From: Chamaelirium japonicum
Taxonomy: Eukaryota > Streptophyta > Magnoliopsida > Liliales > Melanthiaceae
Direction: 5' to 3'
NCBI GenBank assembly: GCA_947650365.1
Contig: CANTAL010000024.1
Location: 62,001 to 126,000, forward strand
DNA: 64,000 bases
In this document: in pieces, positions 1 through 64,000 of the stretch
Layout: each line of letters begins with the position of its first letter
How positions within the stretch are numbered: the first letter of the stretch is position 1
Translations under genes and position numbers: made by a program
The notes under the pieces: generated by a model
Told to the model about the DNA's origin: nothing
The model's input: the letters and a program-made list of their open reading frames with translations, nothing else
Database searches by the model: none

Positions 1-172
1 TAATTCATTCGCACGATCCATTCTAATTCATTCATACGAATCCATTCTATTTCATTCGTACGATCTATTCTATTTCATTCGTACGATCCATTCTAATTCC
101 TTCGTATGATCCATTCTAATTCATTCGCACAATCTATTCTAATTCATTCGTACGATCCATTCTAATTCATTG
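1..172 (-). repeat. Minus-oriented block at left edge
   Basis: Monomers read as TCCATTCTAATTCATTCG units. The window starts inside this block. It ends at a fold-back, TTCATTGTGCGAATGAA, where orientation turns to plus. Confidence 0.9.
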
Positions 173-1265
173 TGCGAATGAATTAGAATGGATCATACGA
201 ATGAATTGGAATGGATACATTCGTGCGAATGAATTAGAATGGATCTTATGAATGAATTAGAGTGGATACATTCATATAAATGAATTAGAATGGATCGTAC
301 GAATGAATTAGAATGGATACATTCGTACGAATGAATTAGCATCGATCGTACGAATGAAATAGAATGGATCGTACGAATGAATTAGAATGGATCGTGCGAA
401 TAAATTAGAATGGATCATACGAAGGAATTAGAATTGATCGTACGAATGAATTAGAATGGATCGTAGTAATGAATTAGAATGGATCGTACGAATGAATTAG
501 AATGGATCGTACGAATGAAATAGAATGGATCGTATGAATGAATTAGAATGGATCGTGCGAATGAATTAGAATGGATCATACGAATGAATTAGAATAGATT
601 GTGCGAATGAATTAGAATGGATCATGCGAATGAATTAGAATGGATCGTACGAATGAATTAGAATAGATTGTGCGAATGAATTAGAATGGATCGTACGAAT
701 GAATTAGAATGGATCGTACGAATGAATTAGACTGGATCGTATGAATGAATTAGAATGGATCGTGAGAATGAATTAGAATGGATCATACGAAGGAATTAGA
801 ATAGATCATACGAAGAAATTAGAATGGATCGTACGAATGAATTAAAATGGATCGTATGAATGAATTAGAATGGATCGTGCGAATGAATTAAAATGGATCG
901 TACGAAGGAATTAGAATGGATCATGCGAATGAATTAGAATAGATCATACGAAAGAATTAGAATGGATCGTACGAATGAATTAGAATGGATCGTACGAATG
1001 AATTAGAATGGATCGTATCAATGAATTAGAATGGATCGTGCGAATGAATTAGAATGGATCGTACGAAGGAATTAGAATAGATCATACGAAAAAATTAGAA
1101 TGGATCGTACGAATGAATTAGAATGGATCGTATGAATGAATTAGAATGGATCGTGCGAATGAATTAAAATGGATCGTACGAAGGAATTAGTATGGATCAT
1201 GCGAATGAATTAGAATAGATCATACGAATGAATTAGAATGGATCGTACGAATGAATTAGAATGGA
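173..1265 (+). repeat. Plus block with 12-monomer higher-order repeat
   Basis: This is a regular run of 23-bp units with a few 28-bp units between 205 and 330. From about 780 the variant order (CATACGAAGAAATT, then TAAAATGG, TATG, TGCG, TAAAATGG, AAGGAATT, CATGCG, AGATCATACG) repeats with its start at 804 and again at 1080, an offset of 276 bp or twelve monomers. The block ends GGATACATTCTAATTC, where a 28-bp unit is cut inside its insertion. Confidence 0.9.
688..710 (+). repeat. Reference 23-bp monomer
   Basis: This is an exact consensus copy: GGATCGTACGAAT then GAATTAGAAT. It contains an 8-bp perfect palindrome (TCGTACGA) and sites for GATC and GTAC. The plus strand has only two cytosines, both in CpG; the complementary strand has six, four of them in CHH context. 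The unit can loosely be parsed into 5-bp pieces (GAATG, AATTA, GAATG, GATCG, plus TAC), hinting at an older GAATG-like simple repeat; that parse is speculative. Confidence 0.95.
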
Positions 1266-1944
1266 TACATTCTAATTCATTCGTACGATCCATTATAATT
1301 CATTCATACGATCCATTCTAATTCATTCATATGATCCATTCTAATTCATTCGTACGGTATGATTCATTCTAATTCATTCGTACGATTCATTCTAATTCAA
1401 TCCATTCTAATTCATTCGTACGATCCATTCTAATACATTCGTACGATCCATTCTAATTCATTCATACGATTCATTCGTATCCATTCTAATTCATTCGTAC
1501 GATCTATTCTAATTCATTCGTACGATCCATTCTAATTCATTAATACGATCCAATCTAATTCATTCATACGATCCATTCTATTTTATTCGTACGATCCATT
1601 CTTACTCATTCGCACGATCCATTTTAATTCATTCGCATGATCCATTCTTATTCATTCGTACGATCCATTCTATTTCATTCATACGATCCATTCTAATTCA
1701 TTCATACGATCCATTCTAATTCATACGATCCATTCTAATTCATTCATACGATCCATTCTAATCCATTCGCACAAATGTAACCATTTTAATTCATTCGCAC
1801 TATCTATTCTAATTCATTCATACGATCAATTCTAATTCATTAGCATGATCCATTCTAATTCATTCGTACGATCTATTCTATTTCATTCGTACAATCCATT
1901 CTTACTCAACCGTATGATCCATTCTAATTCATTCGCACAAATAG
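1266..1944 (-). repeat. Minus block with CGTACGGTATGATTC tag
   Basis: The composite tag (second-type 28-bp unit plus GATTC monomer plus 15-bp unit) is at about 1352-1410. Around 1795-1925 lies the module CGCACTATC, TAGCATGATCC, GATCTATTCTATTTC, ACAATCC, CTTACTCAACCG, which recurs at 14890-15020 and 47320-47470. Confidence 0.9.
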
Positions 1945-2568
1945 TACGAATGAATTAGAATGGATACCTTCGTGCAAATGAATTAGAATGGATCGTACGA
2001 ATGAGTAAGAATGGATCGTACGAATGAATCGATCATATGAATGAATTAGAATGGATCGTTTGAGTGAATGCGAATGGATCGTGCGAATGAATTAGAATGG
2101 ATTGTACGAATGAATTAGAATGGATCGTATGAATGAATTAGAATGGATCGTACGAATGAATTAGAATGGATCGTACGAATGAATTAGAATGGACTGAATT
2201 AGAATGAATCGTACGAATGAATTAGAGTTGATACATTCGTGTGAATGAATTAAAATGGATAATACGAATGAGTAAGAATGGATCGTAGAATTAGAATGGA
2301 TCGTATGAATGAATTAGAATGGATCGTACGAATGAATTAGAATGGATACATTCGTGCGAATGAATTAGAATGGATCGTATGAATGAATTAGAATGGATCG
2401 TACGAAGGAATTAGAATGGATAGTACGAATGAATTAGAATGGATACCTTCGTGCAAATGAATTAGAATGGATCGTACGAATGAGTAAGAATGGATCGTAT
2501 GAATGAAATAGAATGGATCGTATGAATGAATTAGAATGGATTGTGCGAATGAATTAGAATGGATCTGG
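1945..2568 (+). repeat. Plus block with TTTGAGTGAATGCG and 18-bp units
   Basis: The first TTTGAGTGAATGCG variant is at 2058. The 18-bp-unit module is at 2221-2330, and ACCTTCGTGCAAATG at about 2445. The block ends in junction class B (GGATCTGGATCGTGTATCC). Confidence 0.9.
2344..2371 (+). repeat. Reference 28-bp monomer (ACATT insertion)
   Basis: The unit starts GGATACATTCGTGCGAAT and ends GAATTAGAAT, so it is the 23-bp monomer with ACATT inserted after GGAT and an A-to-G change in the core. The insertion completes a near-palindrome, ATTCG-TG-CGAAT. Sister forms have ACCTTCGTGCAAATG or CATTCGTGCAAAAG. It is dispersed throughout the window in both orientations, usually singly and not as a pure 28-bp array. 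Confidence 0.93.
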
Positions 2569-2942
2569 ATCGTGTATCCATTCTAACTCATTCGTACAAT
2601 CCAGATCCATTCTAATTCATTCGCACAATCTATTCTAATTCATTCGTAGGATCGTGCGAATGAATTAGAATGGATCGTGCGAATGAGTTAGAATGGATCG
2701 TACGAATGAATTAGAATGGATCGTACGAATGAATTAGAATGGATCGTACGAATGAATTAGAAAGGATACATTCGTACAAATGAATTAGAATGGATCGTAC
2801 GAATGAATTAGAGTGGATACATTCGTACAAATGAATTAGAATAGATCGTACGAATGAATTAGAATGGATACATTCGTGCGAATGAATTAGAATGGATCGT
2901 ACGAATGACTAAGAATGGATCGTAAGAATAAAATAGAATGTC
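2569..2942. repeat. Short minus insert (2569-2648) then plus run (2649-2942)
   Basis: The minus insert contains CAATCCAGATCC, which resembles the other strand of junction B, so the two class B arms lie within 40 bp of each other here. The return to plus is at TTCGTAGGATCGTGCG, a fusion also seen at 37165-37180. Confidence 0.85.
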
Positions 2943-4235
2943 GCACGAATGTATCCATTATAATTCATTCATACGATCCATTCTAATTCATTCATACGAT
3001 CCATTCTATTTCATTCGTACGATCCATTCTTACTCAATCGGACGATCCATTCTAATTCATTTGCACGAAGGTATCCATTCTAATTCATTCGTACTATCCA
3101 TTCTAATTCCTTCGTACGATCCATTCTAATTCATTCATACGATCCATTCTAATTCATTCGCACGATCCATTCTAATTCATTCATATGATCCATTCTATTT
3201 CATTCGTACGATCCATTCTTACTCATTCGTACGATCCATTCTAATTCATTTGCACGAATGATCCATTCTACTTCATTCGTACTATCTATTCTAATTCCTT
3301 CGTACGATCCATTCTAATTCATTCGAACGATCCATTCTAAGTCATACGTACGATCCATTCTAATTCATTCGTACGATCCATTCTAATTCATTCGTACGAT
3401 CCATTCTTACTCATTCGTACGATCCATTCGTATCCATTCGAATTCATTCGTACGATCTATTCTAATTCATTCGTACGATCCATTCTAATTCATTATTACG
3501 ATCCAATCTAATTCATTCAAACGATCCATTCTAATTCATTCGTACAATCCATTCTAATTCATTACTACGATCCATTCTAATTCATTCATACGATCCATTC
3601 TAATTCATTCGTACGATCCATTCTAATTCATTCGCACGATCTATTCTAATTCATTCATACGATCCACTCTAATTCATTCGTATGTATCCATTCTAATTCA
3701 TTCATACGATCCATTCTAATTCTACGATCCATTCTTACTCATTCGTATTATCCATTTTAATTCATTCACACGAATGTATCAACTCTAATTCATTCGTATG
3801 ATCCATTCTAATTCATTCGCACGAATGTATCCATTCTAATTCATTCGTACGATCCATTCTAATTCATTCGCACAATCTATTCTAATTCATTCATACGATC
3901 CATTCTAATTTATTCGCACGATCCATTCTAATTCATTCATACGATCCATTCTAATTTATTCATATGATCCATTCTAATTCATTCGCACGAATATATCCTT
4001 TCTAATTCATTCGTACGATCCAAATTCATTTATCCGTACGATCTATTCTATTTCATTCGTACGATCCATTCTTATCGTACGATCCATTCTAATTCATTCG
4101 TACGATCCATTCTAATTCATTCGTACGATTCATTCTAATTCAATCCATTCTAATTCATTCGTACGATCCATTCTATTTCATTCGTACGATCCATTCTTAC
4201 TCATTCGTACGATCCATTCGTATCCATTCTAATTC
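2943..4235 (-). repeat. Long minus block
   Basis: It opens after a broken class A junction (TAGAATGTCGCACGAATG). It contains GCACGAAGGTATCC (minus form of the ACCTT 28-mer) near 3063, a CATTCGTATCCATTC truncated unit near 3427, and the inverted copy of the 18-bp-unit module at 3715-3795. It ends TTCAATGGATCG. Confidence 0.9.
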
Positions 4236-4483
4236 AATGGATCGTACGAATGAGTAAGAATGGATCGTATGAATGAATTAGAATGGATCGTTTGAATGAA
4301 TTAGAATCGATCGTACGAATGAATTAGAATGGATCATGCGAATGAATTAGAATGGATCGTACGAATGAATTAGAATGGATCGTATGAATGAATTAGAATG
4401 GATCGTAGTAATGAATTAGAATAGATCGTACAAATGAATTAGAATGGATACGAATGGATCGTACGAATGAGTAAGAATGGATC
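4236..4483 (+). repeat. Plus block
   Basis: About eleven units, among them CGTTTGAATG and TAGTAATG variants. It ends GGATCTATTCTAATTC, an abrupt switch without a linker. Confidence 0.88.
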
Positions 4484-6058: not shown

Positions 6059-6328
6059 TACGAATGAATTAGAATGGATCGTATGAATGAATTAGAATGG
6101 ATCGTGCGAATGAATTAGAATGGATCGTACGAATGAATTAGAATAGATTGTGCGAATGAATTAGAATGGATCGTACGAATGAATTAGAATGGATCGTACG
6201 AATGAATTAGACTAGATTGTGCGAATGGATTTGAATAGATCATACGATTGAGTAAGAATGGATTGTACGAATGAAATAGAATAGATCGTACGAATGAATT
6301 AGAATGGATCGTATGAATGAATTAGAAT

Positions 6329-9130: not shown

Positions 9131-9172
9131 CGTACGAATGAATTAGAATGGATCGTATGAATGAATTAGAAT
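9095..9172. repeat. 78-bp perfect palindrome at a minus-to-plus switch
   Basis: The arms are 39 bp each, centred between 9133 and 9134, again with a shared CGTATG variant in both arms. Confidence 0.92.
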
Positions 9173-9637
9173 GGATTGAATTAGAATGAATCGTACGAAT
9201 GAATTAGAATGAATCATACCGTACGAATGAATTAGAATGGATCATACGAAGGAATTAGAATGGATCGTATGAATGAATTAGAGTGGATACATTCGTACAA
9301 ATGAATTAGAATAGATCGTACGAATGAATTAGAATGGATACATTCGTGCGAATGAATTAGAATGGATCGTATGAATGAATTAGATTGGATCGTATGAATT
9401 AATTAGAATGGATTGTATGAATTAGAATGGATACCTTCGTGCAAATGAAATAGAATGGATCGTACGAATGAATTAGAGTAGATTGTGCGAATGGATTAGA
9501 ATGGATCATAGGATCGTACGAATGAATTAGAATGGATCGTACGAATGAATTAGAATGGATCGTATGAATGAATTAGAATGGATCGTGCGAATGAATTAGA
9601 ATGGATCGTATGAATGAAATAGAATGGATTCGCACGA
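9131..9637 (+). repeat. Plus block, left copy of the 1434-bp-offset duplication
   Basis: The order 15-bp unit, CATACCGTACG unit, AAGGAATT, GAGTGG, two 28-bp units, then ACCTTCGTGCAAATG, GTAGATTGTG and the odd fusion GGATCATAGGATCG (about 9505) is reproduced at 10565-11072. It ends in class A. Confidence 0.9.
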
Positions 9638-9700
9638 ATGTATCCATTCTAATTTATTCGTACGATCCATTCTAATTCATTCGTACAATCCATTCTAATA
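9131..9700. repeat. Local duplication, copy 1 (offset 1434)
   Basis: CGTACGAATG at 9131 and CTAATA at 9695-9700 match 10565 and 11129-11134. The copy includes a class A junction and a 60-bp minus insert. Confidence 0.88.
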
Positions 9701-10565: not shown

Positions 10566-11134
10566 GTACGAATGAATTAGAATGGATCGTATGAACGAAT
10601 ATGAATGGATTGAATTAGAATGAATCGTACGAATAAATTAGAATGAATCATACCGTACGAATGAATTAGAATGGATCATACGAAGGAATTAGAATGGATC
10701 GTATGAATGAATTAGAGTGGATACATTCGTACAAATGAATTAGAATGGATCGTACGAATGAATTAGAATGGATACATTCGTGCGAATGAATTAGAATGGA
10801 TCGTATGAATGAATTAGATTGGATCGTATGAATGAATTAGAATGGATTGTATGAATTATAATGGATACCTTCGTGCAAATGAAATAGAATGGATCGTACA
10901 AATGAATTAGAGTAGATTGTGCGAATGGATTAGAATGGATCATAGGATCGTACGAATGAATTAGAATGGATCGTACGAATGAATTAGAATGGATCATATG
11001 AATGAATTAGAATGGATCGTGCGAATGAATTAGAATGGATCGTACGAATGAAATAGAATGGATTCGCACGAATGTATCCATTCTAATTCATTCGTACGAT
11101 CCATTCTAATTCATTCGTACAATCCATTCTAATA
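10565..11134. repeat. Local duplication, copy 2 (offset 1434)
   Basis: Partner of 9131-9700. It differs by scattered substitutions such as GAACGAATATG near 10587. Confidence 0.88.
10566..11132. repeat. Plus block (10566-11072) plus 60-bp minus insert
   Basis: This is the right copy of the 1434-bp-offset duplication. It includes the GGATCATAGGATCG fusion, the class A junction at about 11060-11080 and the same short minus insert returning at CTAATACGAATG (11131). Confidence 0.9.
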
Positions 11135-11694
11135 CGAATGAATTAGAATGGATCGTACGAATGAATTAGTATGGATCGTATGAATGAATTAGAATGGATC
11201 GTGCGAATGAATTAGAATGGATCGTACGAATGAATTAGAATGGATCGTACGAATGAATTAGAATGGATCGTACGAATGAATTAGAATGGATCGTGTGAAT
11301 GAATTAGAATGGATCGTACGAATGAAATAGAATGGATCGTATGAATGAATTAGAATGGATCGTGCGAATGAATTAGAATGGATAGTACGAATGAATTAGA
11401 ATGGATACCTTCGTGCAAATGAATTAGAATGGATCGTACGAATGAGTAAGAATGGATCGTACGAATGAAATAGAATGGATCGTATGAATGAATTAGAATG
11501 GATCGTGCGAATGAATTAGAATGAATCGTACGAATGAATTAGAATAGATTGTGCGAATGAATAAGAATGGATCGTACGAATGAATTAGAATGGATCGTAC
11601 GAATGAATTAGAATGGATCGTATGAATGAATTAGAATGGATCGTGCGAATGAATTATATTGGATCGTACGAATGAATTAGAATGGATACATTCG
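11133..11694 (+). repeat. Plus block with AGTACG-ACCTT-GAGTAAG-GAAATAG module
   Basis: The ordered variants GATAGTACG, ACCTTCGTGCAAATG, GAGTAAG, GAAATAG, TATG, TGCG start near 11385. This order is the commonest higher-order module of the window. The block ends in class A (other orientation). Confidence 0.9.
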
Positions 11695-12277
11695 TGCGAA
11701 TCCATTCTATTTCATTCGTACGATCCATTCTAATTCATTCGCACGATCCATTCTAATTCATTCATACGATCCATTCTAATTCATTCGTACGATCCATTCT
11801 AATTCATTCGTACGATCCATTCTAATTCATTCGCACAATCTATTCTAATTCATTCGTACGATCCATTCTAATTCATTCGCACGATCCATTCTAATTCATT
11901 CATACGATCCATTCTATTTCATTCGTACGATCCATTCTTACTCATTCGTACGATCCATTCTAATTCATTTGTACGAAGGTATCCATTCTAATTCATTCGT
12001 ACTATCCATTCTAATTCCTTCGTACGATCCATTCTAATTCCTTCGTACGATCCATTCTTATCGTACGATCCATTCTAATTCAATCCATTCTAATTCATTC
12101 GTACGATCCATTCTAATTCATTCGTACGATCCATTCTAATTCATTCGTACGATTCATTCTATTTCAATCCATTCTAATTCATTCGTACGATCCATTCTAT
12201 TTCATTCGCACGATCCATTCTAATTCATTCGCACGATCCATTCTAATTCATTCATACGATCCATTCTAATTCATTCG
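11695..12277 (-). repeat. Minus block, right copy of the 1711-bp-offset duplication
   Basis: Matches 10029-10565 by fixed spacing of GCACGAAGG or GTACGAAGG, CATTCTTATCGTACG and TTCAATCC marks. It ends in the 86-bp perfect palindrome at 12236-12321. Confidence 0.9.
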
Positions 12278-12321
12278 TACGAATGAATTAGAATGGATCG
12301 TATGAATGAATTAGAATGGAT
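12236..12321. repeat. 86-bp perfect palindrome at a minus-to-plus switch
   Basis: The arms are 43 bp each with no spacer, centred between 12278 and 12279 in CGT|ACG. Both arms carry the CGTATG variant one monomer out. It ends where one side has GGATCG and the other GGATTG. Confidence 0.93.
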
Positions 12322-19321: not shown

Positions 19322-20885
19322 GGATTGTGCAAATGAATTAGAATGGATCTTACGAATGAATTAGAATGGAACGTATAGATTGTGCGAATGAATTAGAATG
19401 GATCGTACGAATGAATTAGAATGGATTGTACGAATGAATTAGAATGGATCATACGAATGAGTAAGAATGGATCGTACGAATGAAATAGAATGGATCGTAT
19501 GAATGAATTAGAATGGATACGTGCGAATGAATTAGAATTGATCGTACGAATGAATTAGAATAGATTGTGCGAATGAATGGATCGTACGAATGGATCGTAC
19601 GAATGAAATAGAAGAAAATGGATCGTACGAATGAATTGGAATGGATACATTCGTGCGAATGAATTAGAATTGATCGTACGAATGAAATAGAATGGATCGT
19701 GCGAATGAATGAGAATGGATCGTATGAATGAATTAGAGTGGATCATATGAATGAATTTGAATGGATCGTATGAATGAATTAGAATGGATCGTGCGAATGA
19801 ATTAGAATGGATCGTGCGAATGAATTAGAATGGATCGTACGAATGAATTAGAATGGGTCGTATGAATGAATTAGAATGGATCGTACGAATGAGTAAGAAT
19901 GGATCGTACGAATGGGTAAGAATGGATCGTACGAATGAAATAGAATGGATCGTATGAATGAATTAGAATGGATCGTGCGAATGAATTAGAATGGATTGTA
20001 CGAATGAATTAGAATGGATCGTACGAATGAATTAGAATGGATACATTCGTGCGAATGAATTAGAATGGATCATATGAATGAATTAGAATGGATCGTTTGA
20101 GTGAATGCGAATGGATCGTGCGAATGAATTAGAATGAATCGTACGAATGAATTAGAATAGATTGTGCGAATGAATTAGAATGGATCGTACGAATGAATTA
20201 GATTGGATCGTACGAATGAATTAGAATGGATCGTACGAATGAGTAAGAATGGATTGAATTAGAATGAATTAGAATGGATACATTCATGCAAAAGAATTAG
20301 AATGGATTGTATGAATGAAATTAGAATGGATCGTACGAATGAATTAGAATGGATCGTACGAATGAATTAGAATGGATCGTATGAATGAATTAGAATGGAT
20401 CGTACGAATGAGTAAGAATGGATCGTACGAATGAATTAGAATGGATTAAATTAGAATGAATTGTACGAATGAATTAGAATGGATCGTACGAATAAATTAG
20501 AATGGATCGTACGAATGAATTAGAATGGATCGTACGAAGGAATTAGAATGGATAGTACGAATGAATTAGAGTGGATACCTTTGTGCAAATGAATTAGAAT
20601 GGATCGTACGAATGAGTAAGAATGGATCGTACGAATGAAATAGAATGGATCGTATGAATGAATTAGAATGGATCATGCGAATGAATTAGAATGGATCATA
20701 CGAATGAATCAGAATAGATTGTGCGAATGAATTAGAATGGATCATACGAATGAATTAGATTGGATCGTACGAATGAATTAGAATGGATCATGCGAATGAA
20801 TTAGAATGGATCGTACGAATGAATTAGAATGGATCGTACGAAGGAATTAGAATGGATCGTACGAATGAATTAGAAAGGATACATT
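19322..20885 (+). repeat. Plus block ending in class C junction
   Basis: It has GGAACGTATAGATTGTG (about 19370, also at about 34890 and, as GGAACGTAAAG, at 26018), the AGAAGAAAATGG unit (about 19611), TTTGAGTGAATGCG at 20095 and the ACCTT module (as ACCTTTG) near 20560. It ends AAAGGATACATTCGAATTC. Confidence 0.9.
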
Positions 20886-22653
20886 CGAATTCATTCGTAC
20901 GATCCATTCTAATTCCTTCGTACGATCCATATTCTAATTCATTCGCACGATCCATTCTAATTTATTCATACGATCCATTGTAATTTATTCGCACGATCCA
21001 TTCTAATTCATTCGTACGATCCATTCTAATTCATTCGCACAATCTATTCTAATTCATTCGAACGATCCATTCTAATTCATTCGTACGATCCATTCTAATT
21101 CATTCGTACGATCTATTCTATTTCATTCGTACAATCCATTCTTACTCAATCGTGTAATCCATTCTAATCCATTCGCACAATCAACTCTAATTCATTCGTA
21201 CGATCCATTCTATTTCATTTTCACGAAGGTATCCATTCTAATTCATTCGTACGATCCATTCTAATTCCTTCGTATGATCCATTCTAATTCATTCGTACGA
21301 TCCATTCTAATTCATTCGCACGATCCATTCTAATTCATTCGTACGATCCATTCTATTTCATTCATACGATCCATTCTAATTCATTCATACGATCCATTCT
21401 AATTCATTCACACGATCCATTCTAATTCATTCGCATGATCCATTCTAATTCATTCGTACGATCGATTCTAATTCATTCATACGATCCATTCTAATTCATT
21501 CGCACGAATGTATCCATTCTAATTCATTCGTACGATCCATTCTAATTCATTCATACGATCCATCCTAATTCATTCGCACGAATGTATCCATTCTAATTCA
21601 TTCGTACAATCCATTCTATTTCATTCGTACAATCCATTCTTACTCATTTGTACGATCCATTCGTATCCATTCTAATTCATTCGTACGATCTATTCTAATT
21701 CATTCGTACGATCCATTCTAATTCATTAATACGATCCAATCTAATTCATTCATACGATCCATTCTAATTCATTCGTACGATCCATTCTAATTCATTCGCA
21801 CGATCCATTCTAATTCATTCGCACGATCCATTCTAATTCATTCATACGATCCATTCTAATTCATTCGTACGATCCATTCTAATTCATTCATACGATCCAT
21901 TCTAATTCATTCGTACGGTATGATTCATTCTAATTCATTCGTACGATTCATTCTAATTCAATCCATTCTAATTCATTCGTACGATCCATTCTAATTCATT
22001 CATACGATCCATTCTAATTCATTCATATGATCCATTCTAATTCATTCGTACGATCCATTCTAATTCCTTCGTACGATCCATTCTAATTCATTCGCACGAT
22101 CCATTCTCCATTCTAACTCCTTCGCACGATCCATTCTAATTCATTCGTATGATCCATTCTAATTCATTCGCACAATCTATTCTAATTCACTCAAACGATC
22201 CATTCTATTTCATTCGTACGATCCATTCTAATTCATTCGCACGAATGTATCCATTCCAATTCATTCGTACGATCCATTCTAATTCATTCGCACGATCCAT
22301 TCTAATTCATTCGTACGATCCATTCTAATTCATTCGTACGATCTATATTCTAATTCATTCGCACGATCCATTCTAATTCATTCATACGATCCATTCTAAT
22401 TTATTTGCACGATCCATTCTAATTCATTCGTACGATCTATTCTATTTCATTCGTACAATCCATTCTTACTCAATCGTACGATCCATTCTAATTCATTCGT
22501 ACGATTCATTCTAATTCAATCCATTCTAATTCATTCGTACTATCCATTCTAATTCCTTCGTACGATCCATTCAAATTCCTTCGTACGATCCATTCTAATT
22601 CATTCGTACGATCCATTCTAATTCATTCGTACTATCCTTTCTAATTCATTCGT
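20886..22653 (-). repeat. Long minus block
   Basis: It starts with the CCATATTC variant that follows every main class C junction. CTTACTCAATCG is near 21141, the CATCCTAATTC and CGTATCCATTC set at 21540-21770, the GGTATGATTC tag near 21915, and CATTCTCCATTC near 22106. Confidence 0.9.
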
Positions 22654-32743: not shown

Positions 32744-35438
32744 AATGGATCGTACGAATGAATTAGAATTGATTGAATTAGAATGAATCGTACGAATGAA
32801 TTAGAATGGATCGTGCGAATGAATTAGAATGGATTGTACGAATGAATTAGAATGGATCGTATGAATGAATTAGATTGGATCGTATGAATGAATTAGAATG
32901 GATCGTGCGAATGAATTAAAATGGATCGTACGAATGAATTAGAATGGATCGATTGAATGAATTAGAATGGATCGTACTTATGAATTAGAATGGGTCATAC
33001 GAATGAAATAGAATGGATCGTACGAAGGAATTAGAAAGGATCGTACAAACGAATTAGAATGGATCGTATGAATGAAATAGAATAGATCGTACGAATGAAT
33101 TAGAATGGATCGTATGAATGAATTAGATTGGATCGTATGAATGAATTAGAATGGATTGTACGAATGAAATATATTAGATCGTACAAATGAATTAGAATGG
33201 ATCGTGCGAATGAATTAGAATGGGTCGTACGAATGAATTAGAATGGATCGTGCGAATGAATTAAAATGGATCGTATGAATGAAATAGAATGGATCGTATG
33301 AATTAGAATGGATCGTACGAATGAAATAGAATGGATCGTACGAATGAATTAGAATGGATCGTATGAGTGTGAATGAATTAGAATGGATTGTGCGAATGAA
33401 TTAGAATGGATCGTACGAATGAATTAGAATGGATCGTACGAAGGAATTAGAATGGATCGTACGAAGGAATTAGAATGGATAGTACGAATGAATTAGAATG
33501 GATACCTTCGAGCAAATAAATTAGAATGGGTCGTACGAATGAGTAAGAATGGATCATACGAATGAAATAGAATGGATCGTATGAATGAATTAGAATGGAT
33601 CGTGCGAATGAATTAGAATGGATCGTACGAATGAATTAGAATAGATTGTGCGAATGAATTAGAATGGATCGTACGAATGAATTAGAATGGATCGTACGAA
33701 TGAATTAGAATGGATCGTATGAATGAATTAGAATGGATCGTGCGAATGAATTAGAATGGATCGTGCGAATGAAATAGAATGGATCGTACGAATGAATTAG
33801 AATGGATTGAATTAGAATGAATCGTACGAATGAATTAGAATGGATCGTACGAATGAATTAGAATGGATCGTACGACTGAATTAGAATGGATTGAATTAGA
33901 ATGGATCGTACGATAAGAATGAATCGTACAAATGAAATAGAATAGATCGTACGGATAAATGAATTTGGATCGTACGAATGAATTAGAAAGGATATATTCG
34001 TGCGAATGAATTAGAATAGATCGTATGAATGAATTAGATTTGATCGTATTAATGAATTAGAATTGATCGTGCGAATGAATTAGAAAGGATCGTACGAATG
34101 AATTAGAATGGATAGATTCGTACGAATGAATTTGAATGGATCGTATGAATGAATTAGAATGGATCGTTCGAATGAATTATAATAGATTGTGCGAATGAAA
34201 TAGAATAGATTGTACGAATGAATTAGAATGAATCGTACGAATGAATTAGAATGAATCATACCGTACGAATGAATTAGAATGGATCATACGAAGGAATTAG
34301 AATGGATCGTGCGAATAAATTAGAATGGATCGTATGAATGAATTAGAATAGATTGTGCGAATGGATTAGAATGGATCATACGATTGAGTAAGAATGGATT
34401 GTACGAATGAAATAGAATAGATCGTACGAATGAATTAGAATGGATCATGCTAATGAATTAGAATTGATCGTACGAATGAATTAGAATAGATTGTGCGACT
34501 AAATTAAAATGGATTGTATAAATGAATTAGAATGGATCGTATGAATGAATTAGAATGGATCGTGCAAATATATTAAAATGGATCGTATGAATGAAATAGA
34601 ATGGATCGTATGAATTAGAATGGATCGTACGAATGAAATAGAATGGATCGTACGAATGAATTAGAATAGATTGTGCGAATGGATTAGAATGGATCATACG
34701 ATTGAGTAAGAAAGGATTGTACAAATGAAAAAGAATAGATCGTACGAATGAATTAGAATGGATCGTATGAATGAATTAGAAAGGATCGTTCGAATGAATT
34801 AGAATAGATTGTGCGAATGAATTAGAATGGATCGTACGAATGAATTAGAATGGATCGTGCGAATAAATTAGAATATATCTTACGAATGAATTAGAATGGA
34901 ACGTATAGATTGTGCGAATGAATTAGAATGGATCGTACGAATGAATTAGTATGGATCGTACGAATGAATTAGAATGGATCGTACAAATGAGTAAGAATGG
35001 ATCGTACGAATGAAATAGAATGGATCGTATGAATGAATTAGAATGGATACGTGCGAATGAATTAGAATTGATCGTACGAATGAATTAGAATAGATTATGC
35101 GAATGAATTAGAATGGATCGTACGAATGAATTGGAATGGATACATTCGTGCGAATGAATTAGAATAGATCGTACGAATGAAATAGAATGGATCGTGCGAA
35201 TGAATTAGAATGGATCGTACGAATGAATTAGAATGGATCGTGCGAATGAATTAGAATGGATCGTATTAATGAATTTGAATGGATCGTACGAATGAATTAG
35301 AATGGAACGTACGAATGAATTAGAATGGATCGTAGAATGGATTGTATGAATGAATTAGATTGGATCGTACGAATGTGTAAGAATGGATCATATGAATGAA
35401 TTAGAATGGATCGTACGAATGAATTAGAATGGATACAT
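32744..35438 (+). repeat. Longest single-orientation block (about 2.7 kb)
   Basis: It contains the ACCTTCGAGCAAATAA unit near 33500, the ACGGATAAATGAATTTGG short unit near 33952, a CATACCGTACG unit near 34255, CGATTGAGTAAG modules near 34380 and 34698 and GGAACGTATAG near 34890. The 34360-34500 variant order recurs at 36670-36870 and 61090-61290. It ends GGATACATTTCGTACG. Confidence 0.92.
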
Positions 35439-39507: not shown

Positions 39508-40745
39508 CGAATCCATTCTATTTCATTCGTACGATCCATTCTAATTCATTCGCATGATCCATTTTAATTCATTCATACGATCCATTCTAATTCATTCGTA
39601 CGATCCATTCTAATTCATTCGTACGATCCATTCTAATTCATTCGCACGATCCATTCTAATTCATTCGTACGATCCATTCTAATTCATACGAATAAATTAG
39701 AATAGATTCTAATTCCTTCGTACGATCCATTCTAATTCCTTCGTACGATCCATTCTAATTCATTCGTACGATCTATTCTAATTCATTCATACGATCCATT
39801 CTAATTCATTCGCACGATCCATTCTAATTCATTCGCATGATCCATTCAAATTCATTCGTAAAATCGATTCTAATTCATTCATACGATCCATTCTAATTCA
39901 TTCACACGAATATATCCATTCTAATTCATTCGTACGATCCATTCTAATTCATTCATACGATCCATCCTAATTCATTCGCACGAATGTATCCATTCTAATT
40001 CATTCGTACAATCCATTCTATTTCATTCGTATGATCCATTCTTACTCATTCGTACGATCCATTCGTATCCATTCTAATTCATTCGTATGATCTATTCTAA
40101 TTCATTCGTACGATCCATTCTAATTCATTAATACGATCCAATCTAATTCATTCATACGATCCATTCTAATTCATTCGTACGATCCATTCTATTTCATTTG
40201 CACGAAGGTATCCATTCTAATTCATTCGTACTATCCATTCTAATTCCTTCGTACGATCCATTCTAATTCATTCGTACGATCCATTCTAATTCATTCGCAC
40301 GATCCATTCTAATTTATTCGTACGATCCATTCTAATTCATTCATACGATCCATTCTAATTCATTCGTACGATCCATTCTAATTCCTTCGTATCCATTCTA
40401 ATTCACTCGTACGATCCATTCTAATTCATTTATACGAATCATTTTAATTCATTCGCATAATCTATTCTAATTCATTCGTACGATCAATTCTAATTCATTC
40501 GCACGATCCATTCTAATTCATTCGTACGATCCATTCTATTTCATTCGTACGATCCATTCTTACTCATTTGTACGATCCATTCTAATTCATTCGCACGATC
40601 CATTCTAATTTATTCGCACGATCCATTCTAATTCATTCGTACGATCCATTCTAATTCCTTCGTATGATCCATTCTAACTCATTCGCACGATCCATTCTAA
40701 TTCATTCTCACAATCTATTCTAATTCATTCGTACAATCCATTCTA
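39508..40745 (-). repeat. Minus block with an 18-bp plus insert
   Basis: At about 39688-39705 less than one monomer of plus sequence (AATAAATTAGAATAG) interrupts the block. CATCCTAATTC (39963) and CGTATCCATTC (about 40063) belong to a segment matching 21540-21770. It ends CCATTCTAATTAGAATGG. Confidence 0.88.
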
Positions 40746-42528: not shown

Positions 42529-44131
42529 CGTATGCATGAATTAGAATGGATCGTGCGAATGAATTAGAATAAATTAGAATGGATCGTACGAATGAATTAG
42601 AATGGATCGTGCGAATGAATTAGAATGGATCGTGCGAATGAATTAGAATGGATCGTATGAATAAATTAGAATGGATCGTGCGAATGAATTAGAATGGATC
42701 GTACGAATGAATTAGAATGGATACATTCGTGCGAAGAATTAGAAAAGATCGTATGAATGAATTAGAATGGATCGTATGAATGAAATAGAATGGATCGTAC
42801 GAATGAATTAGAATGGATCGTGCGAATGAATTAGAATGGATCGTGCGAATGAATTAGAATGGATCGTACGAAGGAATTAGAATGGATCGTACGAATGAAT
42901 TAGAATAGATCGTACGAATGAATTAGAATGGATACGAATGGATCGTACGAATGAGTAAGAATGGATCGTACGAATGAATTAGAATGGATTGAATTAGAAT
43001 GAATCGTACGAATGAATTAGAATGGATCGTACGAATGAAATAGAATGGATCGTATGAATGAATTAGAATGGATCGTACGAATGAATTAGAATGGATTGTA
43101 CGAATGAATTAGAATGGATCGTACGAATGAAATAGAATGGATCATACGAATGAAATAGAATGGATCGTACGAATGAATTAGAATAGATTGTGCGAATGGA
43201 TTAGAATGGATCATACGATTGAATAAGAATGGATTGTACGAATGAAATAGAATAGATCATACGAATGACTTAGAATGGATCGTATGAATGAATTAGAATG
43301 GATTGAATTAGAATGAATCGTACGAATGAATTAGAATGGATCGTACGAATGAATTTTAATGGATCGTACGAATGAATTAGAATGGATTGAATTAGAATGA
43401 ATCGTACGAATGAATTAGAATGAATCATACCGTACGAATGAATTAGAATGGATCATACGAAGGAATTAGAATGGATCGTGCGAATAAATTAGAATGGATC
43501 GTATGAATGAATTAGATTAGAATGGATCGTACGAATGAGTAAGAATGGATCGTACGAATGAAATAGAATGGATCGTACGAATGAATTAGAATAGATTGTG
43601 CGAATGGATTAGAATGGATCATACGATTGAGTAAGAATGGATTGTACGAATGAAATAGAATAGATCGTACGAATGAATTAGAATGGATCGTATGAATGAA
43701 TTAGAATGGATTGTACGAATGAAATAGAATGGATCGTATGAATGAATTAGAATGGATCGTTTGAGTGAATGCGAATGGATCGTGCGAATGAATTAGAATG
43801 AATTGTACGAATGAAATAGAATGGATCGTATGAATGAATTAGAATGGATTGAATTAGAATGAATCGTACGAATGAATTAGAATGAATCATACCGTACGAA
43901 TGAATTAGAATGGATCGTACGAATGAATTAGAATGGATCGTACGAATGAATTAGAATGGATCGTACGAATGAATTAGAATGGATCGTGCGAATGAATTAG
44001 AATGGATCGTACGAATGAATTAGAATAGATTGTGCGAATGAATAAGAATCGATCATACGAAGAAATTAGAATGGATCGTACGAATGAATTAGAATGGATC
44101 GTATGAATGAATTAGAATGGATACATTCGTG
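42529..44131 (+). repeat. Plus block, includes left copy of the 5945-bp-offset duplication
   Basis: From about 43130 the sequence is reproduced at 49075 onward. Marks are CGATTGAATAAG, two composite tags (43385 and 43850), ATTAGATTAGAATGG (43511) and TTTGAGTGAATGCG (43759). It ends in class A. Confidence 0.92.
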
Positions 44132-44580
44132 CGAATCCATTCTATTTCATTCGTACGATCCATTCTAATTCATTCGCACGATCCATTCTTACTCATTCGT
44201 ACGATCCATTCTAATTCATTCGTACGATCCATTCTAATTCATTCGTACGATCCATTCTAATTCAATCCATGCGAATGAATACGAATAGATTAGAATGAAT
44301 CGTACGAATGAATTAGATTGGATCCTACGAATGAATTAGAATAGATTGTGCGAATGAATTAGAATGGATCTGGATCGTGTATCCATTCTAATTCATTCGT
44401 ACGACCCATTCTAATTCATTCGTACGATCCATTCTAATTCATTCGCACGATCCATTCTAATTCATTCATACGATCCATTCTAATTTATTCATATAATCCA
44501 TTCTAATGGATCGTGCGAATGAATTAGAATGGATCGTACGAATGAATTGGAATGGATACATTCGTGCGAATGAATTATAA
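43130..44580. repeat. Segmental duplication, copy 1 (offset 5945)
   Basis: Landmarks at 43511, 43759, 44271 and 44501 each have a counterpart exactly 5945 bp to the right. The segment spans four orientation blocks and one junction each of classes A and B. Similarity fades before 43130 and after about 44620. Confidence 0.9.
44132..44505. repeat. Minus (44132-44269), plus (44270-44372), minus (44373-44505)
   Basis: Three switches in 375 bp: TTCAATCCATGCGAATG, class B, and CCATTCTAATGGATCG. All are copied exactly in position at 50078-50450. Confidence 0.9.
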
Positions 44581-48780: not shown

Positions 48781-50077
48781 ACAAATGGATTAGAATGGAT
48801 CGTACGAATGAATTAGAATGGATACATTCGTGCGAATGAATTAGAATAGATCGTATGAATGAATTAGATTGGATCGTATGAATGAGTTAGAATGGATTGT
48901 ATGAATTAGAATAGATACCTTCGTGCAAATGAAATAGAATGGATCATACGAATGAATTAGAGTAGATTGTGCGAATGGATTAGAATGGATCGTACGAAGG
49001 AATTAGAATGGATAGTACGAATGAATTAGAATGGATACCTTCGTGCAAATGAATTAGAATGGATCGTACGAATGAGTAAGAATGGATCGTACGAATGAAA
49101 TAGAATGGATCGTACGAATGAATTAGAATAGATTGTGCGAATGGATTAGAATGGATCATACGATTGAGTAAAAATGGATTGTACGAATGAAATAGAATAG
49201 ATCGTCAGAATGAATTAGAATGGATCGTATGAATGAATTAGAATGGATTGAATGAGAATGAATCGTACGAATGAATAAGAATGGATCGTACGAATGAATT
49301 AGAATGGATCGTACGAATGAATTAGAATGGATTGAATTAGAATGAATCGTATGAATGAATTAGAATGAATCATACCGTACGAATGAATTAGAATGGATCA
49401 TACGAAGGAATTAGAATGGATCGTGCGAATAAATTAGAATGGATCGTATGAATGAATTAGATTAGAATGGATCGTACGATTGAGTAAGAATGGATCGTAC
49501 GAATGAAACAGAATGGATCGTACTAATGAATTAGAATAGATTGTGCGAATGGATTAGAATGGATCATACGATTGAGTAAGAATGGATTGTATGAATGAAA
49601 TAGAATAGATCGTACGAATGAATTAGAATGGATCGTATGAATGAATTAGAATGGATTGTACGAATGAAATAGAATGGATCGTATGAATGAATTAGAATGG
49701 ATCGTTTGAGTGAATGCGAATGGATCGTGGGAATGAATTAGAATGGATTGTACGAATGAAATAGAATGGATCGTATGAATGAATTAGAATGGATTGAATT
49801 AGAATGAATCGTACGAATGAATTAGAATGAATCATACCGTACGAATGAATTAGAATGGATCGTACGAATGAATTAGAATGGATCGTACGAATGAATTAGA
49901 ATGGATCGTACGAAAGAATTAGAATGGATCGTGCGAATGAATTAGAATGGATCGTACGAATGAATTAGAATAGATTGTGCGAATGAATAAGAATAGATCA
50001 TACGAAGAAATTAGAATGGATCGTACGAATGAATTAGAATGGATCGTATGAATGAATTAGAATGGATACATTCGTAC
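48781..50077 (+). repeat. Plus block, includes right copy of the 5945-bp-offset duplication
   Basis: Two ACCTTCGTGCAAATG units (about 48917 and 49038) come first; the duplicate begins near 49075. It ends in class A with CGTACG in place of CGTGCG. Confidence 0.92.
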
Positions 50078-50525
50078 GAATCCATTCTATTTCATTCGTA
50101 CGATCCATTCTAATTCATTCGCACGATCCATTCTTACTCATTTGTACGATCCATTCTAATTCATTCGTACGATCCATTCTAATTCATTCGTACGATCCAT
50201 TCTAATTCAATCCATGCGAATGAATACGAATGGATTAGAATGAATCGTAGGAATGAATTAGATTGGATCCTACGAATGAATTAGAATAGATTGTGCGAAT
50301 GAATTAGAATGGATCTGGATCGTGTATCCATTCTAATTCATTCGTACGACCCATTCTAATTCATTCGTACGATCCATTCTAATTCATTCGCACGATCCAT
50401 TCTAATTCATTCATACGATCCATTCTAATTCATTCATACAATCCATTCTAATGGATCGTGCGAATGAATTAGAATGGATCGTACGAATGAATTGGAATGG
50501 ATACATTCGTGCGAATGAATTATAA
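49075..50525. repeat. Segmental duplication, copy 2 (offset 5945)
   Basis: Partner of 43130-44580. Differences seen are scattered single-base changes (for example CGATTGAGTAA for CGATTGAATAA, CATTCGTACG for CATTCGTGCG); no net indel over about 1.45 kb. Confidence 0.9.
50078..50450. repeat. Minus, plus, minus runs duplicated from 44132-44505
   Basis: Boundaries at 50215, 50317 and 50450 are each 5945 bp from their counterparts, with no net length change. Confidence 0.9.
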
Positions 50526-60756: not shown

Positions 60757-61287
60757 GAATGGATACGAAGGAATTAGAATGGATCGTACGAATGAATTAG
60801 AATGGATTGAATTAGAATGAATCGTACGAATGAATTAGAATGGATCATACGAATGAATTAGAATGGATCGTATCAATGAAATAGAATGGATCGTATGAAT
60901 GAATTAGAATGGATCGTGCGAATGAATTAGAATGGATCGTACGAATGAATTAGAATGGATCGTATGAATGAATTAGAATGGATCGTGCGAATAAATTAGA
61001 ATGGATCGTATGAATGAATTAGAATGGATCGCACGAATTAGAATGGATCGTACGAATGAAATAGAATGGATCGTACGAATGAATTAGAATAGATTGTGCG
61101 AATGGATTAGAATGGATCATACGATTGAGTAAGAATGGATTGTACGAATGAAATAGAATAGATCGTACGAATGAATTAGAATGGATCATGCTAATGAATT
61201 AGAATTGATCGTACGAATGAATTAGAATAGATTGTGCGAATGAATTAGAATGGATAGTACGAATGAATTGGAATGGATACATTCGTG
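60757..61287 (+). repeat. Plus block
   Basis: 61090-61290 repeats the CGATTGAGTAAG, GAAATAG, CATGCTAATG, ATTGATCG, GATTGTGCG order of 34360-34500 and 36670-36870. It ends in class A. Confidence 0.89.
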
Positions 61288-62807
61288 CGAATCCATTCTA
61301 TTTCATTCGTACGATCCATTCTAATTCATTACTACGATCCATTCTAATTCACTCGTACGATCCATTCTAATTCATTCGTACGATCCATTCTAATTCATTC
61401 GCACGATCCATTCTAATTCATTCATACGATCCATTCTAATTCATTCATACGATCCATTCTAATTCATTCGTACTATCCATTCTAATTCCTTCGTACGATC
61501 CATTCTAATTCATTCGTACGATCTATTCTAATTCATTCGTACGATCCATTCTTACTCATTCGTACGATCCATTCTAATTCATTTGCACGAAGGTATCCAT
61601 TCTAATTCATTCGTACTATCCATTCTAATTCCTTCGTACGATCCATTCTTATCGTACGATCCATTCTAATTCAATCCATTCTAATTCATTCGTACGATCC
61701 ATTCTAATTCATTCGTACGATCCATTCTAATTCATTTGCACGATCCATTCTAATTCATTCGCATGATCCATTCTAATTCATTCGCACAATCCATTCTAAT
61801 TCATTCATACGGTCCATTCTATTTCATTCGTACGATCCATTCTAACTCAATCGTACGATCCATTCTAATTCATTTGCACGAAGGTATCCATTCTAATTCA
61901 TTCGTACTATCCATTCTAATTCCTTCGTACGATCCATTCTAATTCCTTCGTACGATCCATTCTAATTCATTCGTACGATCCATTCTAATCCATTTGTACG
62001 AATGTATCCACTCTAATTCATTCATACGATCCATTCTAATTCATTCGTACGATCCATTCTAATTCATTCGTACGATCCATGCTAATTCATTCGCACAATC
62101 TATTCTAATTCATTCGTACGATCCATTCTAATTCATTCGCATGATCCATTCGCATTCACTTAAACGATCCATTCTAATTCATTCATATGATCCATTCTAA
62201 TTCATTCGCACGAATGTATCCATTCAATCCATTCTAATTCATTCGTACGATCCATTCTAATTCATTCGTACGATCCATTCTAATTCCTTCGTATGATCCA
62301 TTCTAATTCATTCGTACGGTATGATTCATTCTAATTCATTCGTACGATTCATTCTAATTCAATCCATTCTAATTCATTCATATAATCTGGATCGTGTATC
62401 CATTCTAATTCATTCGTACGATCAATTCTAATTCATTCGCACGTATCCATTCTAATTCATTCATACGATCCATTCTATTTCATTCGTACGATCCATTCTT
62501 ACTTATTCGTACAATCCATTCTAATTCATTCGTACGATCCATTCTAATTCATTCGTACGTTCCATTCTAATTCATTCGTACGATCCATTCAAATTCTTTA
62601 ATACGATCCATTCTAATTCATTCGCATGATCCATTCTAATTCATTCATATGATCCATTCTAATTCATTCGTACGATCCATTCTAATTCATTCGTACGATC
62701 CATTCTAATTCATTCGCACGAATGAATCCATTCTAATTCATTTGTACGATCGATTCTAATTCATTCATACGATCCATTCTAATTCATTCGCACGAATGTA
62801 TCCATTC
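61288..62807 (-). repeat. Minus block
   Basis: GCACGAAGGTATCC near 61585 and 61877, CATTCTTATCG near 61644, CATTCACTTAAACG near 62153, the tag near 62318, and a class B relic (AATCTGGATCGTGTATCC) near 62386. The right 60 bp match 58050-58110. Confidence 0.89.
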
Positions 62808-63108
62808 TAAATGAATTAGAATGGATCGTACAAATGAGTAAGAATGGATCGTGCGAATGAATTAGAATGGATCATATGAATGAAATAGAATGGATCGTAT
62901 GAATGAATTAGAATGGATCGTGCGAATAAATTAGAACGGATCGTACGAATGAATTAGAATGGATCATGCGAATGAATTAGAATGGATCGTATGAATGAAT
63001 TAGAATGGATCGTGCGAATGAATTAGAATAGATCATACGAACGAATTAGAATGGATCGTACGAATGAATTAGAATGGATTGAATTAGAATGGATCGTACG
63101 AATGAATT
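62808..63108 (+). repeat. Plus block, partial third copy of the 58117 segment
   Basis: Starts CATTCTAAATGAATTAG (62804), 4693 bp from its counterpart at 58111, and keeps the same variant order for about 120 bp. It ends GAATTCCAATGTATCC. Confidence 0.87.
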
Positions 63109-63693
63109 CCAATGTATCCATTCTAATTCATTCATATGATCCATTCTATCTCATTCGTAAAATCCATTCTAATTCATTCGTACGATCCATTCTAATTCAT
63201 TCGCACGATCCATTCTAATTCATTCGTACGAATGTATCGTGCGAATGAGATAGAATGGATCATACGATTGAATTAGAATGTATACATTCGAATTCATTCG
63301 TACGATCCATTCTAATTCAATCCATTCTAATTCATTCGTACGATCCATTCTAATTCATTCGTATGATCTATTCTAATTCATTCGCACGATCCATTCTAAT
63401 TCATTCGTACGATCCATTCTAATTCATTCGCATGATCCATTCTAATTCATTCGTACGATCCATTCTAATTCATTCGCACGATCCATTCTAATTCAATCAT
63501 ACGATCCATTCTAATTCCTTCGTACGATCCATTCTAATTCATTTGTACGATCGATTCTAATTCATTCGCACGATCCATTCTAATTCATTCATACGATCCA
63601 TTCTAATTCATTCGTACGATCCATTCTAATTCATTTGCACGAAGGTATCCATTCTAATTCATTCGTACTATCCATTCTAATCCATTCGCACGA
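63109..63693. repeat. Minus (63109-63232), plus (63233-63285), minus (63286-63693)
   Basis: The middle run is about two monomers. Its right end is a class C variant (GTATACATTCGAATTC). The last run ends at TTCGCACGAATGAATTAG. Confidence 0.86.
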
Positions 63694-64000
63694 ATGAATT
63701 AGAATGGATTGTACGAATGAATTAGAATGGATCGTACGAATGAATTAGAATGGATCGTACGAAGGAATTAGAATGGATCGTACGAATGAATTAGAATGGA
63801 TTGAATTAGAATGAATCGTACGAATGAATTAGAATGAGTCATACCATACGAATGAATTAGAATGGATCATACGAATGAAATAGAATGGATCGTATGAATG
63901 AATTAGAATGGATCATGCGAATGAATTAGAATGGATCGTACGAATGAAATAGAATGGATTCGCACGAATGTATCCATTCTAATTCATTCGCACGATCCAT
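63694..64000. repeat. Plus block (63694-63965) and right edge in minus
   Basis: It has a 15-bp unit near 63806 and CATACCATACG near 63840. A class A junction at about 63957 turns to minus; the array continues past the window. Confidence 0.88.

What the first reader, a model, noticed from the sequence alone, without database searches (positions are those of the whole stretch)
1..64000. About 120 strand switches in 64 kb
Orientation reverses on average every ~530 bp, with runs from under one monomer (39688-39705) to 2.7 kb (32744-35438), and near balance (about 55% plus, 45% minus). Most well-known centromere satellites stay head-to-tail for tens of kilobases or more. Here inversion seems part of how the array is built.
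Basis: seen in the sequence. Interest (0 to 1): 0.75.

Follow-up and report, generated by a model that had tools for sequence, protein, structure and literature searches.

The report
Orientation-flipping plant centromere satellite (Chio)
The stretch is a piece of the 23-bp centromere satellite of the plant Chionographis japonica, whose repeats really do flip strand about every half kilobase; this was already published in outline, and the added detail is that many flips are copies of older junctions spread between arrays rather than separate inversions.

Summary
In detail: a two-orientation HMM strand switches (114-150 with other penalties), 55.4% plus, mean run 520 bp, longest 32744-35438. Run lengths fit an exponential; three simulated head-to-tail arrays gave none.

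The genome matches the Chionographis japonica assembly of Kuo et al. 2023, and the array their CENH3-bound Chio1 (23 bp)/Chio2 (28 bp) satellite. Mixed orientation was published there and called "frequently alternating" in 2025. The headline is already known.

Added here: these are not 122 independent inversions. The same switch spacing recurs on five contigs; a 401-bp piece with three switches sits at 97-100% in 40 of 40 scored places, its own included, on 15 contigs. In this array 55 of 61 tail-to-tail (+-) junctions use three registers; head-to-head (-+) use 18. A sample of C1 lacks that contrast. Calibrated patterns suggest roughly 0.4 million switches genome-wide.

Best reading: switch-bearing blocks are copied by homology-guided exchange, sometimes closed by a new -+ seam. 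An assembly artefact is very unlikely; raw reads were not seen.

The parts
1..64000 (.). Chio1/Chio2 satellite array, 23-bp unit GAATGAATTAGAATGGATCGTAC, both orientations, no non-satellite DNA called inside the window
   Evidence: TRF, HMM; window = C36:62001-126000; held C36 stretches on both sides show the satellite from C36:1 to about C36:126183
32744..35438 (+). longest single-orientation run (2,695 bp)
   Evidence: HMM
39687..39707 (+). one of six called runs shorter than one monomer
   Evidence: HMM
11680..11707 (+). example of +- junction family F0 (GAATGGATACATTCGTGCGAATCCATTC); 18 exact copies in the window (10 forward, 8 reverse)
   Evidence: 12,282 exact copies genome-wide
2557..2583 (+). 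example of +- junction family F17 (GAATGGATCTGGATCGTGTATCCATTC); 10 copies in the window at <=1 mismatch (7 forward, 3 reverse)
20877..20897 (+). example of +- junction family F10a (GGATACATTCGAATTCATTCG); 10 copies in the window at <=1 mismatch
12267..12290 (.). example of dyad-centred -+ junction (TAATTCATTCGTACGAATGAATTA); this is the commonest -+ register (14 of 61)
   Evidence: its 22-mer core has 4,823 sites genome-wide
44124..44504 (.). triple run 144-/113+/124-, repeated 5,945 bp further on at 50069-50449
   Evidence: same run lengths in both copies; exact repeats at 5,945-bp distance and a 1,540-bp direct block pair at that distance, 97.7% identical
50069..50449 (.). second copy of the triple run; piece 50000-50400 (three switches) occurs at 97-100% in 40 of 40 scored places on 15 contigs, its own place included
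9132..9698 (.). run pair 509+/58-, repeated at 10566-11132
1000..1400 (+). 401-bp piece with one switch (1267/1268); 9 full-length places at 98-100% (its own included) on C36, C14, C12, C3, C4, C2
   Evidence: 40 of 1,797 candidates scored

Best explanation
The window is part of a Chio1/Chio2 centromere array of holocentric Chionographis japonica. SHOWN: orientation alternates at random-looking intervals of about 0.5 kb; junctions recur as families; blocks of several hundred to about 5,000 bp carrying their switches are present in direct and inverted copies on the same contig (>=96%), and shorter ones on other chromosomes (97-100%). INFERRED: switches arise rarely, then spread because homology-guided repair (gene conversion, break-induced replication or unequal exchange) copies a block from another array, passing through an existing +- junction. 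When the copied tail is not resolved in register, it is closed by a new -+ seam, preferentially at microhomology such as the TCGTACGA dyad. The 28-bp Chio2 monomer (GAATGGATACATTCGTGCGAATGAATTA) shares its first 22 bases with the main +- junction, so Chio2 looks like a minimal double switch and a likely relative or source of that junction.
For: Identity: C1-C12 lengths add to 1,090.67 Mb with C8 = 81,106,678, against 1,090.73 Mb and N50 81.11 Mb in Kuo et al.; plant-type telomere at C3:1. Copying: eight loci on 5 contigs (C36 x3, C14 x2, C12, C3, C4) share runs of 226/1096/673 bp; one search gives 40 of 40 scored places at 97-100% (2,368 candidates, 40 scored); one search gives 43 direct and 27 inverted block pairs of >=800 bp on C36. 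Core versus seam in this array: +- registers 31, 13 and 11 of 61, -+ in 18 registers, Simpson 0.338 against 0.099, 0 of 5,000 permutations; seen again on C36 outside the window (0.309 against 0.120). In 154 kb of C36 outside the window a +- junction has a median of 17 copies with <=2 edits in 64 bp (10 of 60 have none), a -+ junction 1 (24 of 61 have none), random in-run positions 26. -+ register use follows available microhomology (Spearman 0.53 in the window, P 0.010; 0.64 in the other held satellite, P 0.001), +- does not significantly (0.16, P 0.46; 0.39, P 0.06). GGATAC lies within 25 bp of 49 of 61 +- junctions, 16 of 61 -+, 11.8% of background positions. Natural experiment: the C12 copy (L005) differs from L001 by one clean 209-bp insert carrying an F0 +- junction (188 bp at 95-97% to other F0 copies) and a new -+ seam; none of the other six loci compared with L001 has it.
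Against: The +-/-+ contrast is not general: in C1:1.365-1.468 Mb both kinds fall in few families (47 +- sites, Simpson 0.193; 24 -+ sites, 0.281, at 1 edit; 0.517 against 0.281 at 3 edits). Its size depends on how families are cut: the ratio of family concentrations is 5.5 at <=4 edits per 64 bp, but 1.95 at <=6 and gone at <=8, where single linkage merges most -+ junctions. The polarity of the 209-bp difference is not certain: a deletion between direct monomers would give the same alignment, and the tree is nearly a star. It is a single case. In one search, where near-identical blocks differ by an indel, three distinct joins were +- as well as six -+. -+ registers inside and outside the window are themselves partly related by descent, so the microhomology correlation is not from independent events. 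No raw reads, CENH3 data or polymorphism were available.
Confidence: 0.63

Rival explanations
1. Assembly or fold-back read artefact: chimeric reads or mis-joins create false strand switches.
For: Fold-back artefacts exist in long-read data (general knowledge); raw reads were not examined.
Against: The same switches at the same spacing recur on several contigs. Arms flanking a junction are 86.5% alike, mismatched arms 86.7% (P 0.72, 70 of 122 junctions tested); split by kind, 89.2% against 88.9% for 34 +- and 83.9% against 85.5% for 36 -+, and only 1 of 70 reaches 97%, whereas fold-backs should give near-identical arms. A junction 28-mer occurs 12,282 times. Mixed orientation was published from a HiFi plus Hi-C assembly, which is the same assembly, so this is not independent.
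Confidence: 0.02
2. Many independent local inversions: each switch pair is its own inversion, with no special role for copying.
For: Run lengths are exponential, as random breakpoints would give; -+ junctions in this array are diverse.
Against: Junction families and shared blocks. Each inversion makes one junction of each kind, so both kinds should be about equally diverse; 192 symmetric copy/delete/invert simulations in 12 settings (three of them near the observed switch number) gave concentration ratios between 0.32 and 2.22, against 5.5 observed at <=4 edits. At <=6 edits the observed ratio, 1.95, lies inside the simulated range, so this comparison is weak; the shared blocks are the stronger argument.
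Confidence: 0.11
3. In-place homogenisation: switches are old and fixed in place, and +- cores were made alike by gene conversion between existing +- junctions, without adding switches.
For: F0 occurs about equally in both orientations (6,157 and 6,125 genome-wide), as flipping or conversion between inverted arms would give; in the C1 sample both kinds fall in few families.
Against: Stretches including several switches are shared between chromosomes, and the C12 copy differs by an added (or lost) switch pair.
Confidence: 0.18
4. Selection for alternating orientation, for example because hairpins or cruciforms at junctions help CENH3 loading.
For: The Chio and Chama papers raise hairpin-forming dyads as possible, untested centromere cues; the Tribolium madens paper proposes a chromatin role for its inverted satellite arrays.
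Against: Exponential run lengths show no preferred spacing; the sister genus does without switching; no functional data here.
Confidence: 0.06

Closest known systems
Chio1/Chio2 holocentromere satellite of Chionographis japonica (Kuo et al. 2023, PMC10264360; Kuo et al. 2025, PMC12722358)
   Same: Same genome; 23-bp unit with the TTCGTACGA motif, 28-bp variant, mixed forward and reverse arrays
   Different: Nothing in kind. In the sections and passages I saw there is no junction anatomy, switch count or run-length analysis (word searches: junction and template switch 0 times in the 2023 main text, junction and breakpoint 0 times in the 2025 main text). Figures and supplements were not readable
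Chama satellite of Chamaelirium luteum (PMC12722358)
   Same: Sister genus; shares the 9-bp TTCGTACGA dyad
   Different: 60-bp unit, homogeneous, consistently oriented with higher-order structure over hundreds of kilobases, no retrotransposons in the arrays
TmSat1/TmSat2 macro-dyad arrays of Tribolium madens (PMC13081366)
   Same: Putative (peri)centromeric satellite arrays that change orientation; two predominant, conserved inversion-site types reported for TmSat1 (INV_1a, INV_1b)
   Different: Much longer units; mostly two subarrays per array forming near-symmetric palindromes of kilobases to tens of kilobases; here runs are exponential with median 330 bp and arms are not preferentially alike

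Membership tests
Chio1/Chio2 satellite | 23-bp monomer containing TTCGTACGA | tested here: met
   TRF and HMM consensus; the minus strand reads CATTCGTACGATCC; motif
Chio1/Chio2 satellite | 28-bp variant differing by a 5-bp indel and one substitution | tested here: met
   GAATGGATACATTCGTGCGAATGAATTA differs from the 23-bp unit by ACATT and A to G; 44 exact copies of the 28-mer starting one base later in the window, 428,477 genome-wide; published definition. The published letters were not seen (figure only)
Chio1/Chio2 satellite | comes from the C. japonica assembly: 12 scaffolds, 1,090.73 Mb, N50 81.11 Mb | tested here: met
   12 contigs of 69.9-137.3 Mb adding to 1,090.67 Mb, C8 = 81.107 Mb, C13 only 3.9 Mb. 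Contig number (3,253) and total (1,518.7 Mb) differ a little from the published primary contigs (3,786; 1,526.1 Mb before scaffolding)
[quoted passage not shown]
Chio1/Chio2 satellite | CENH3 enrichment | not testable with these tools
   reported by Kuo et al. for the family; not measured for this contig here
Macro-dyad satellite arrays (Tribolium type) | two near-symmetric subarrays of kilobase length around an inversion site | tested here: not met
   median run 330 bp, exponential lengths; own arms no more alike than mismatched arms
Macro-dyad satellite arrays (Tribolium type) | few conserved inversion-site types | tested here: inconclusive
   met for +- junctions in this array, less so for -+; both kinds few in the C1 sample

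The most novel reading that the evidence does not exclude
Strand switches in Chio arrays behave as heritable, copied modules: a small set of tail-to-tail cores, the main one sharing most of its sequence with the hairpin-bearing Chio2 monomer, is spread between the centromere units of different chromosomes by repair synthesis. Each copying event can leave a head-to-head seam set by microhomology at the TCGTACGA dyad, so that junctions are a readable record of template switching during centromere spread in a holocentric plant.
Probability: 0.27. Interest if true: 0.6.

Novelty: already known. Interest (0 to 1): 0.36.

Why it matters
How C. japonica spread about 100 centromere units along 12 chromosomes is stated to be unknown. 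Junctions are recognisable marks inside an otherwise monotonous satellite, so a catalogue of them could trace which centromere units exchanged DNA, in what direction and how often. It also corrects a natural misreading: some 122 switches do not mean 122 inversions.

Tried and rejected
Rejected: (1) that the C1 unit is unidirectional. One search listed its first 100 exact Chio2 28-mers, all plus, over C1:1,368,418-1,467,624, but one search then showed +- pattern matches there about every 2 kb, so that reading was dropped. (2) That dyad-centred +- junctions (AATGGATCGTACGATCCATT) never form: none in the window at <=2 mismatches, but 6,047 sites genome-wide, so absence from 64 kb means little. 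(3) That exchange is confined to chromosome-end units: suggested (C2, C3, C4, C12, each about 2 Mb from an end), not kept after one search added inner sites on C6 and C9. (4) That the core/seam contrast is general: contradicted. (5) First simulation (70 runs) gave about 1,350 switches per 64 kb, ten times too many, and was replaced. (6) Exact scans of genome contigs and viral contigs for a 30-base piece of the unit found nothing. (7) In one search the 1e-9 setting crashed the script; the other three settings stand. There the axis was read 3-20 bp away from each junction, which shifts register labels and splits the counts differently (27, 14, 13 of 61) without changing the contrast (Simpson 0.297 against 0.099).

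The odds were lowered for this: best explanation from 0.66 to 0.63, novel case from 0.30 to 0.27, the rivals of independent inversions, in-place homogenisation and selection each raised by 0.01.

Rows dropped before counts: one +- junction at the window end (60 of 61 used); 52 of 122 junctions with an arm under 130 bp, 3 longer overlapping +- matches of the 50 listed up to C1:1,468,354, and all later listed rows.
Full report
WHAT IT IS. The whole window is a 23-bp satellite, GAATGAATTAGAATGGATCGTAC, read in both orientations. It is C36:62001-126000 of a 1.519-Gb genome in 3,253 contigs. C3 begins with CCCTAAA telomere repeats, so the organism is a plant. The twelve large contigs add to 1,090.67 Mb and C8 is 81,106,678 bp; Kuo et al. 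2023 give 12 scaffolds, 1,090.73 Mb, N50 81.11 Mb for Chionographis japonica (PMC10264360; abstract, sections 8 and 14 and found passages seen). [quoted passage not shown] A 2025 paper (PMC12722358; found passages and section 12 seen) refers to the "frequently alternating orientation" of Chio arrays and contrasts it with consistently oriented Chama arrays in the sister genus. I recalled the Chionographis link from memory first and then tested it with these calls.

THE OBSERVATION. Run lengths are exponential, and simulated head-to-tail arrays give no switches. Elsewhere on C36 there are 295 switches in 154,420 bp and, in ten short samples of other contigs, five of them copies of one another, 49 in 27,005 bp. 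Two gapped patterns were calibrated on the window: 42 of 61 +- and 30 of 61 -+ junctions found, no false hits. Genome-wide they match 147,544 sites (reversed control 1) and 95,102 sites (control 98). Scaled by the calibration this is about 214,000 and 193,000, roughly 0.4 million switches; with 16.11% of the genome as cluster CL1, about one per 0.5-0.6 kb. The scaling is rough: it rests on one window, and some nested matches are counted twice.

NOT AN ARTEFACT. A 401-bp piece spanning a switch occurs full length at 98-100% in nine places, its own included, on six contigs (40 of 1,797 candidates scored). Eight 3.4-kb loci from five of these contigs all show runs of 226, 1096 and 673 bp in the same order or its mirror image; beyond these runs they differ more, L008 most of all. 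Over the first 2,480 aligned bases pairs differ at 11 to 43 positions. Arms on the two sides of a junction are no more alike than arms of different junctions (86.5% against 86.7%; the same when the two kinds are tested apart), so they look neither like fresh palindromes nor like fold-back reads. Raw reads were not available.

JUNCTION ANATOMY. For each switch I took the reflection register of the 23-bp unit. The 61 +- (tail-to-tail) junctions use 8 registers, with 31, 13 and 11 in three of them; the 61 -+ (head-to-head) use 18, with 14 in the commonest, which is centred on the TCGTACGA dyad. Simpson concentration 0.338 against 0.099, 0 of 5,000 label permutations. The contrast survives other switch penalties and removal of runs under 46 bp, and reappears in C36 outside the window (0.309 against 0.120) and in the samples of other contigs (0.398 against 0.156). 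A 64-bp +- junction of the window has a median of 17 copies with <=2 edits in 154 kb of C36 outside it (10 of 60 have none); a -+ junction has a median of 1 (24 of 61 have none); random in-run positions have 26. Measured as families of similar junctions the contrast depends on the cut: concentrations 0.239 and 0.043 at <=4 edits per 64 bp, 0.292 and 0.150 at <=6, 0.517 and 0.576 at <=8, where single linkage merges most -+ junctions. With the two calibrated patterns it is 0.297 against 0.040 at 1 edit and 0.363 against 0.201 at 3 edits over C36:1-250000. Symmetric copy/delete/invert simulations gave ratios of 0.32 to 2.22 in 192 runs, below the observed 5.5 at <=4 edits but not below the 1.95 at <=6, so they do not settle the matter.

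LINK TO CHIO2. The main +- junction, F0, is GAATGGATACATTCGTGCGAATCCATTC. Chio2 is GAATGGATACATTCGTGCGAATGAATTA: the two share their first 22 bases and then part, F0 into the minus strand, Chio2 back to plus. Read this way, the 5-bp difference between Chio2 and Chio1 is a tiny double switch around the dyad. GGATAC lies within 25 bp of 49 of 61 +- junctions, 16 of 61 -+ and 11.8% of background positions. The likeness is read from the sequence; the order of events is inference. F0 has 12,282 exact copies (6,157 forward, 6,125 reverse, reversed control 0), yet all of the roughly 79 listed on C2:1.65-2.24 Mb point one way, so locally it seems to be amplified in direct orientation.

HOW SWITCHES SPREAD. 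Of the window, 79% is covered by >=96%, >=250-bp copies elsewhere in the DNA held, and 82 of 122 junctions are spanned by such copies. Blocks reach 5,088 bp at 99.1% in inverted orientation. Window 50000-50400, with three switches, is present at 97-100% in 40 of 40 scored places (its own included) on C2, C3, C4, C6, C9, C11, C12 and eight unplaced contigs (2,368 candidates). The C12 locus L005 differs from L001 by one clean 209-bp insert: it begins in plus sequence, runs through an F0 junction into a minus arm (188 bp at 95-97% to other F0 copies) and ends in a new -+ join TTTATTC|GAATGAATTAG. None of the other six loci compared with L001 has it. The longest branches are L008 and L006, which favours insertion in L005, but the tree is nearly a star, so deletion in the others is not excluded. 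-+ registers follow the longest microhomology available at each register (Spearman 0.53, P 0.010 in the window; 0.64, P 0.001 in the other held satellite); +- do not significantly (0.16, P 0.46; 0.39, P 0.06). In one search, among 26 printed indel differences between near-identical blocks (42 candidates before merging, many at the same places), the partner with less DNA has a -+ junction at the join in six distinct cases and a +- in three.

AGAINST IT. The contrast is not a law: in C1:1.365-1.468 Mb, from pattern listings, 47 +- sites give 14 families (Simpson 0.193) and 24 -+ sites 7 families (0.281) at 1 edit; at 3 edits 6 families (0.517) and 7 (0.281). There both junction kinds fall in few families, largely with other sequences than on C36. 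What holds in both places is that junctions come in families. The core-plus-seam history is best supported for C36 and its relatives, and rests on one probable insertion.

COMPARISON. Closest in kind beyond Chio itself is Tribolium madens (PMC13081366, found passages seen), where satellite arrays change orientation at a few conserved inversion sites. Those arrays are mostly two-armed palindromes of kilobases to tens of kilobases, unlike the short exponential runs here. In six paper searches (listings only) and in the parts of the two Chio papers that I saw there was no junction analysis of Chio; figures and supplements were not available.

VERDICT. Real, and already published as a phenomenon. 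The added content is quantitative and anatomical: junction families, block copying between chromosomes, the Chio2 likeness, and one probable case of a switch pair being added.

Noticed in passing
just past the window: C36:126184-140000 (L016:6184-10000, L017): The array is interrupted by non-satellite DNA holding a retrotransposon: a 1,005-aa ORF with reverse transcriptase, RNase H and integrase domains in Ty3/gypsy order. Two more non-satellite inserts lie at C36:150177-157766 (gag domain found) and about C36:213902-223891 (not examined).
   Followed up: partly
C1:1,368,418-1,467,624: The first 100 listed exact Chio2 28-mers are all on the plus strand although +- pattern matches occur about every 2 kb there; exact Chio2 seems confined to one orientation in that array.
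   Followed up: partly
C2:1,652,901-2,244,433: All of the roughly 79 listed F0 junctions point the same way, whereas the window has 10 forward and 8 reverse.
   Followed up: no
C1:1,545,281-1,557,111: Junction strings repeat at spacings of 5,981 and 2,904 bp, suggesting a higher-order repeat with switches built into the unit.
   Followed up: no
window 6434, 10626, 12337, 14087, 43403, 49348, 58629: A second 28-bp variant unit (CGTACGAATGAATTAGAATGAATCATAC and close forms), with its extra bases at a different place from Chio2, recurs as isolated two-copy tandems.
   Followed up: no
C2:103,409,416-103,431,615: 33 listed matches, many overlapping, to TTAGGG x5 in a plant whose chromosome end reads CCCTAAA: interstitial arrays of the vertebrate-type telomere repeat.
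   Followed up: no
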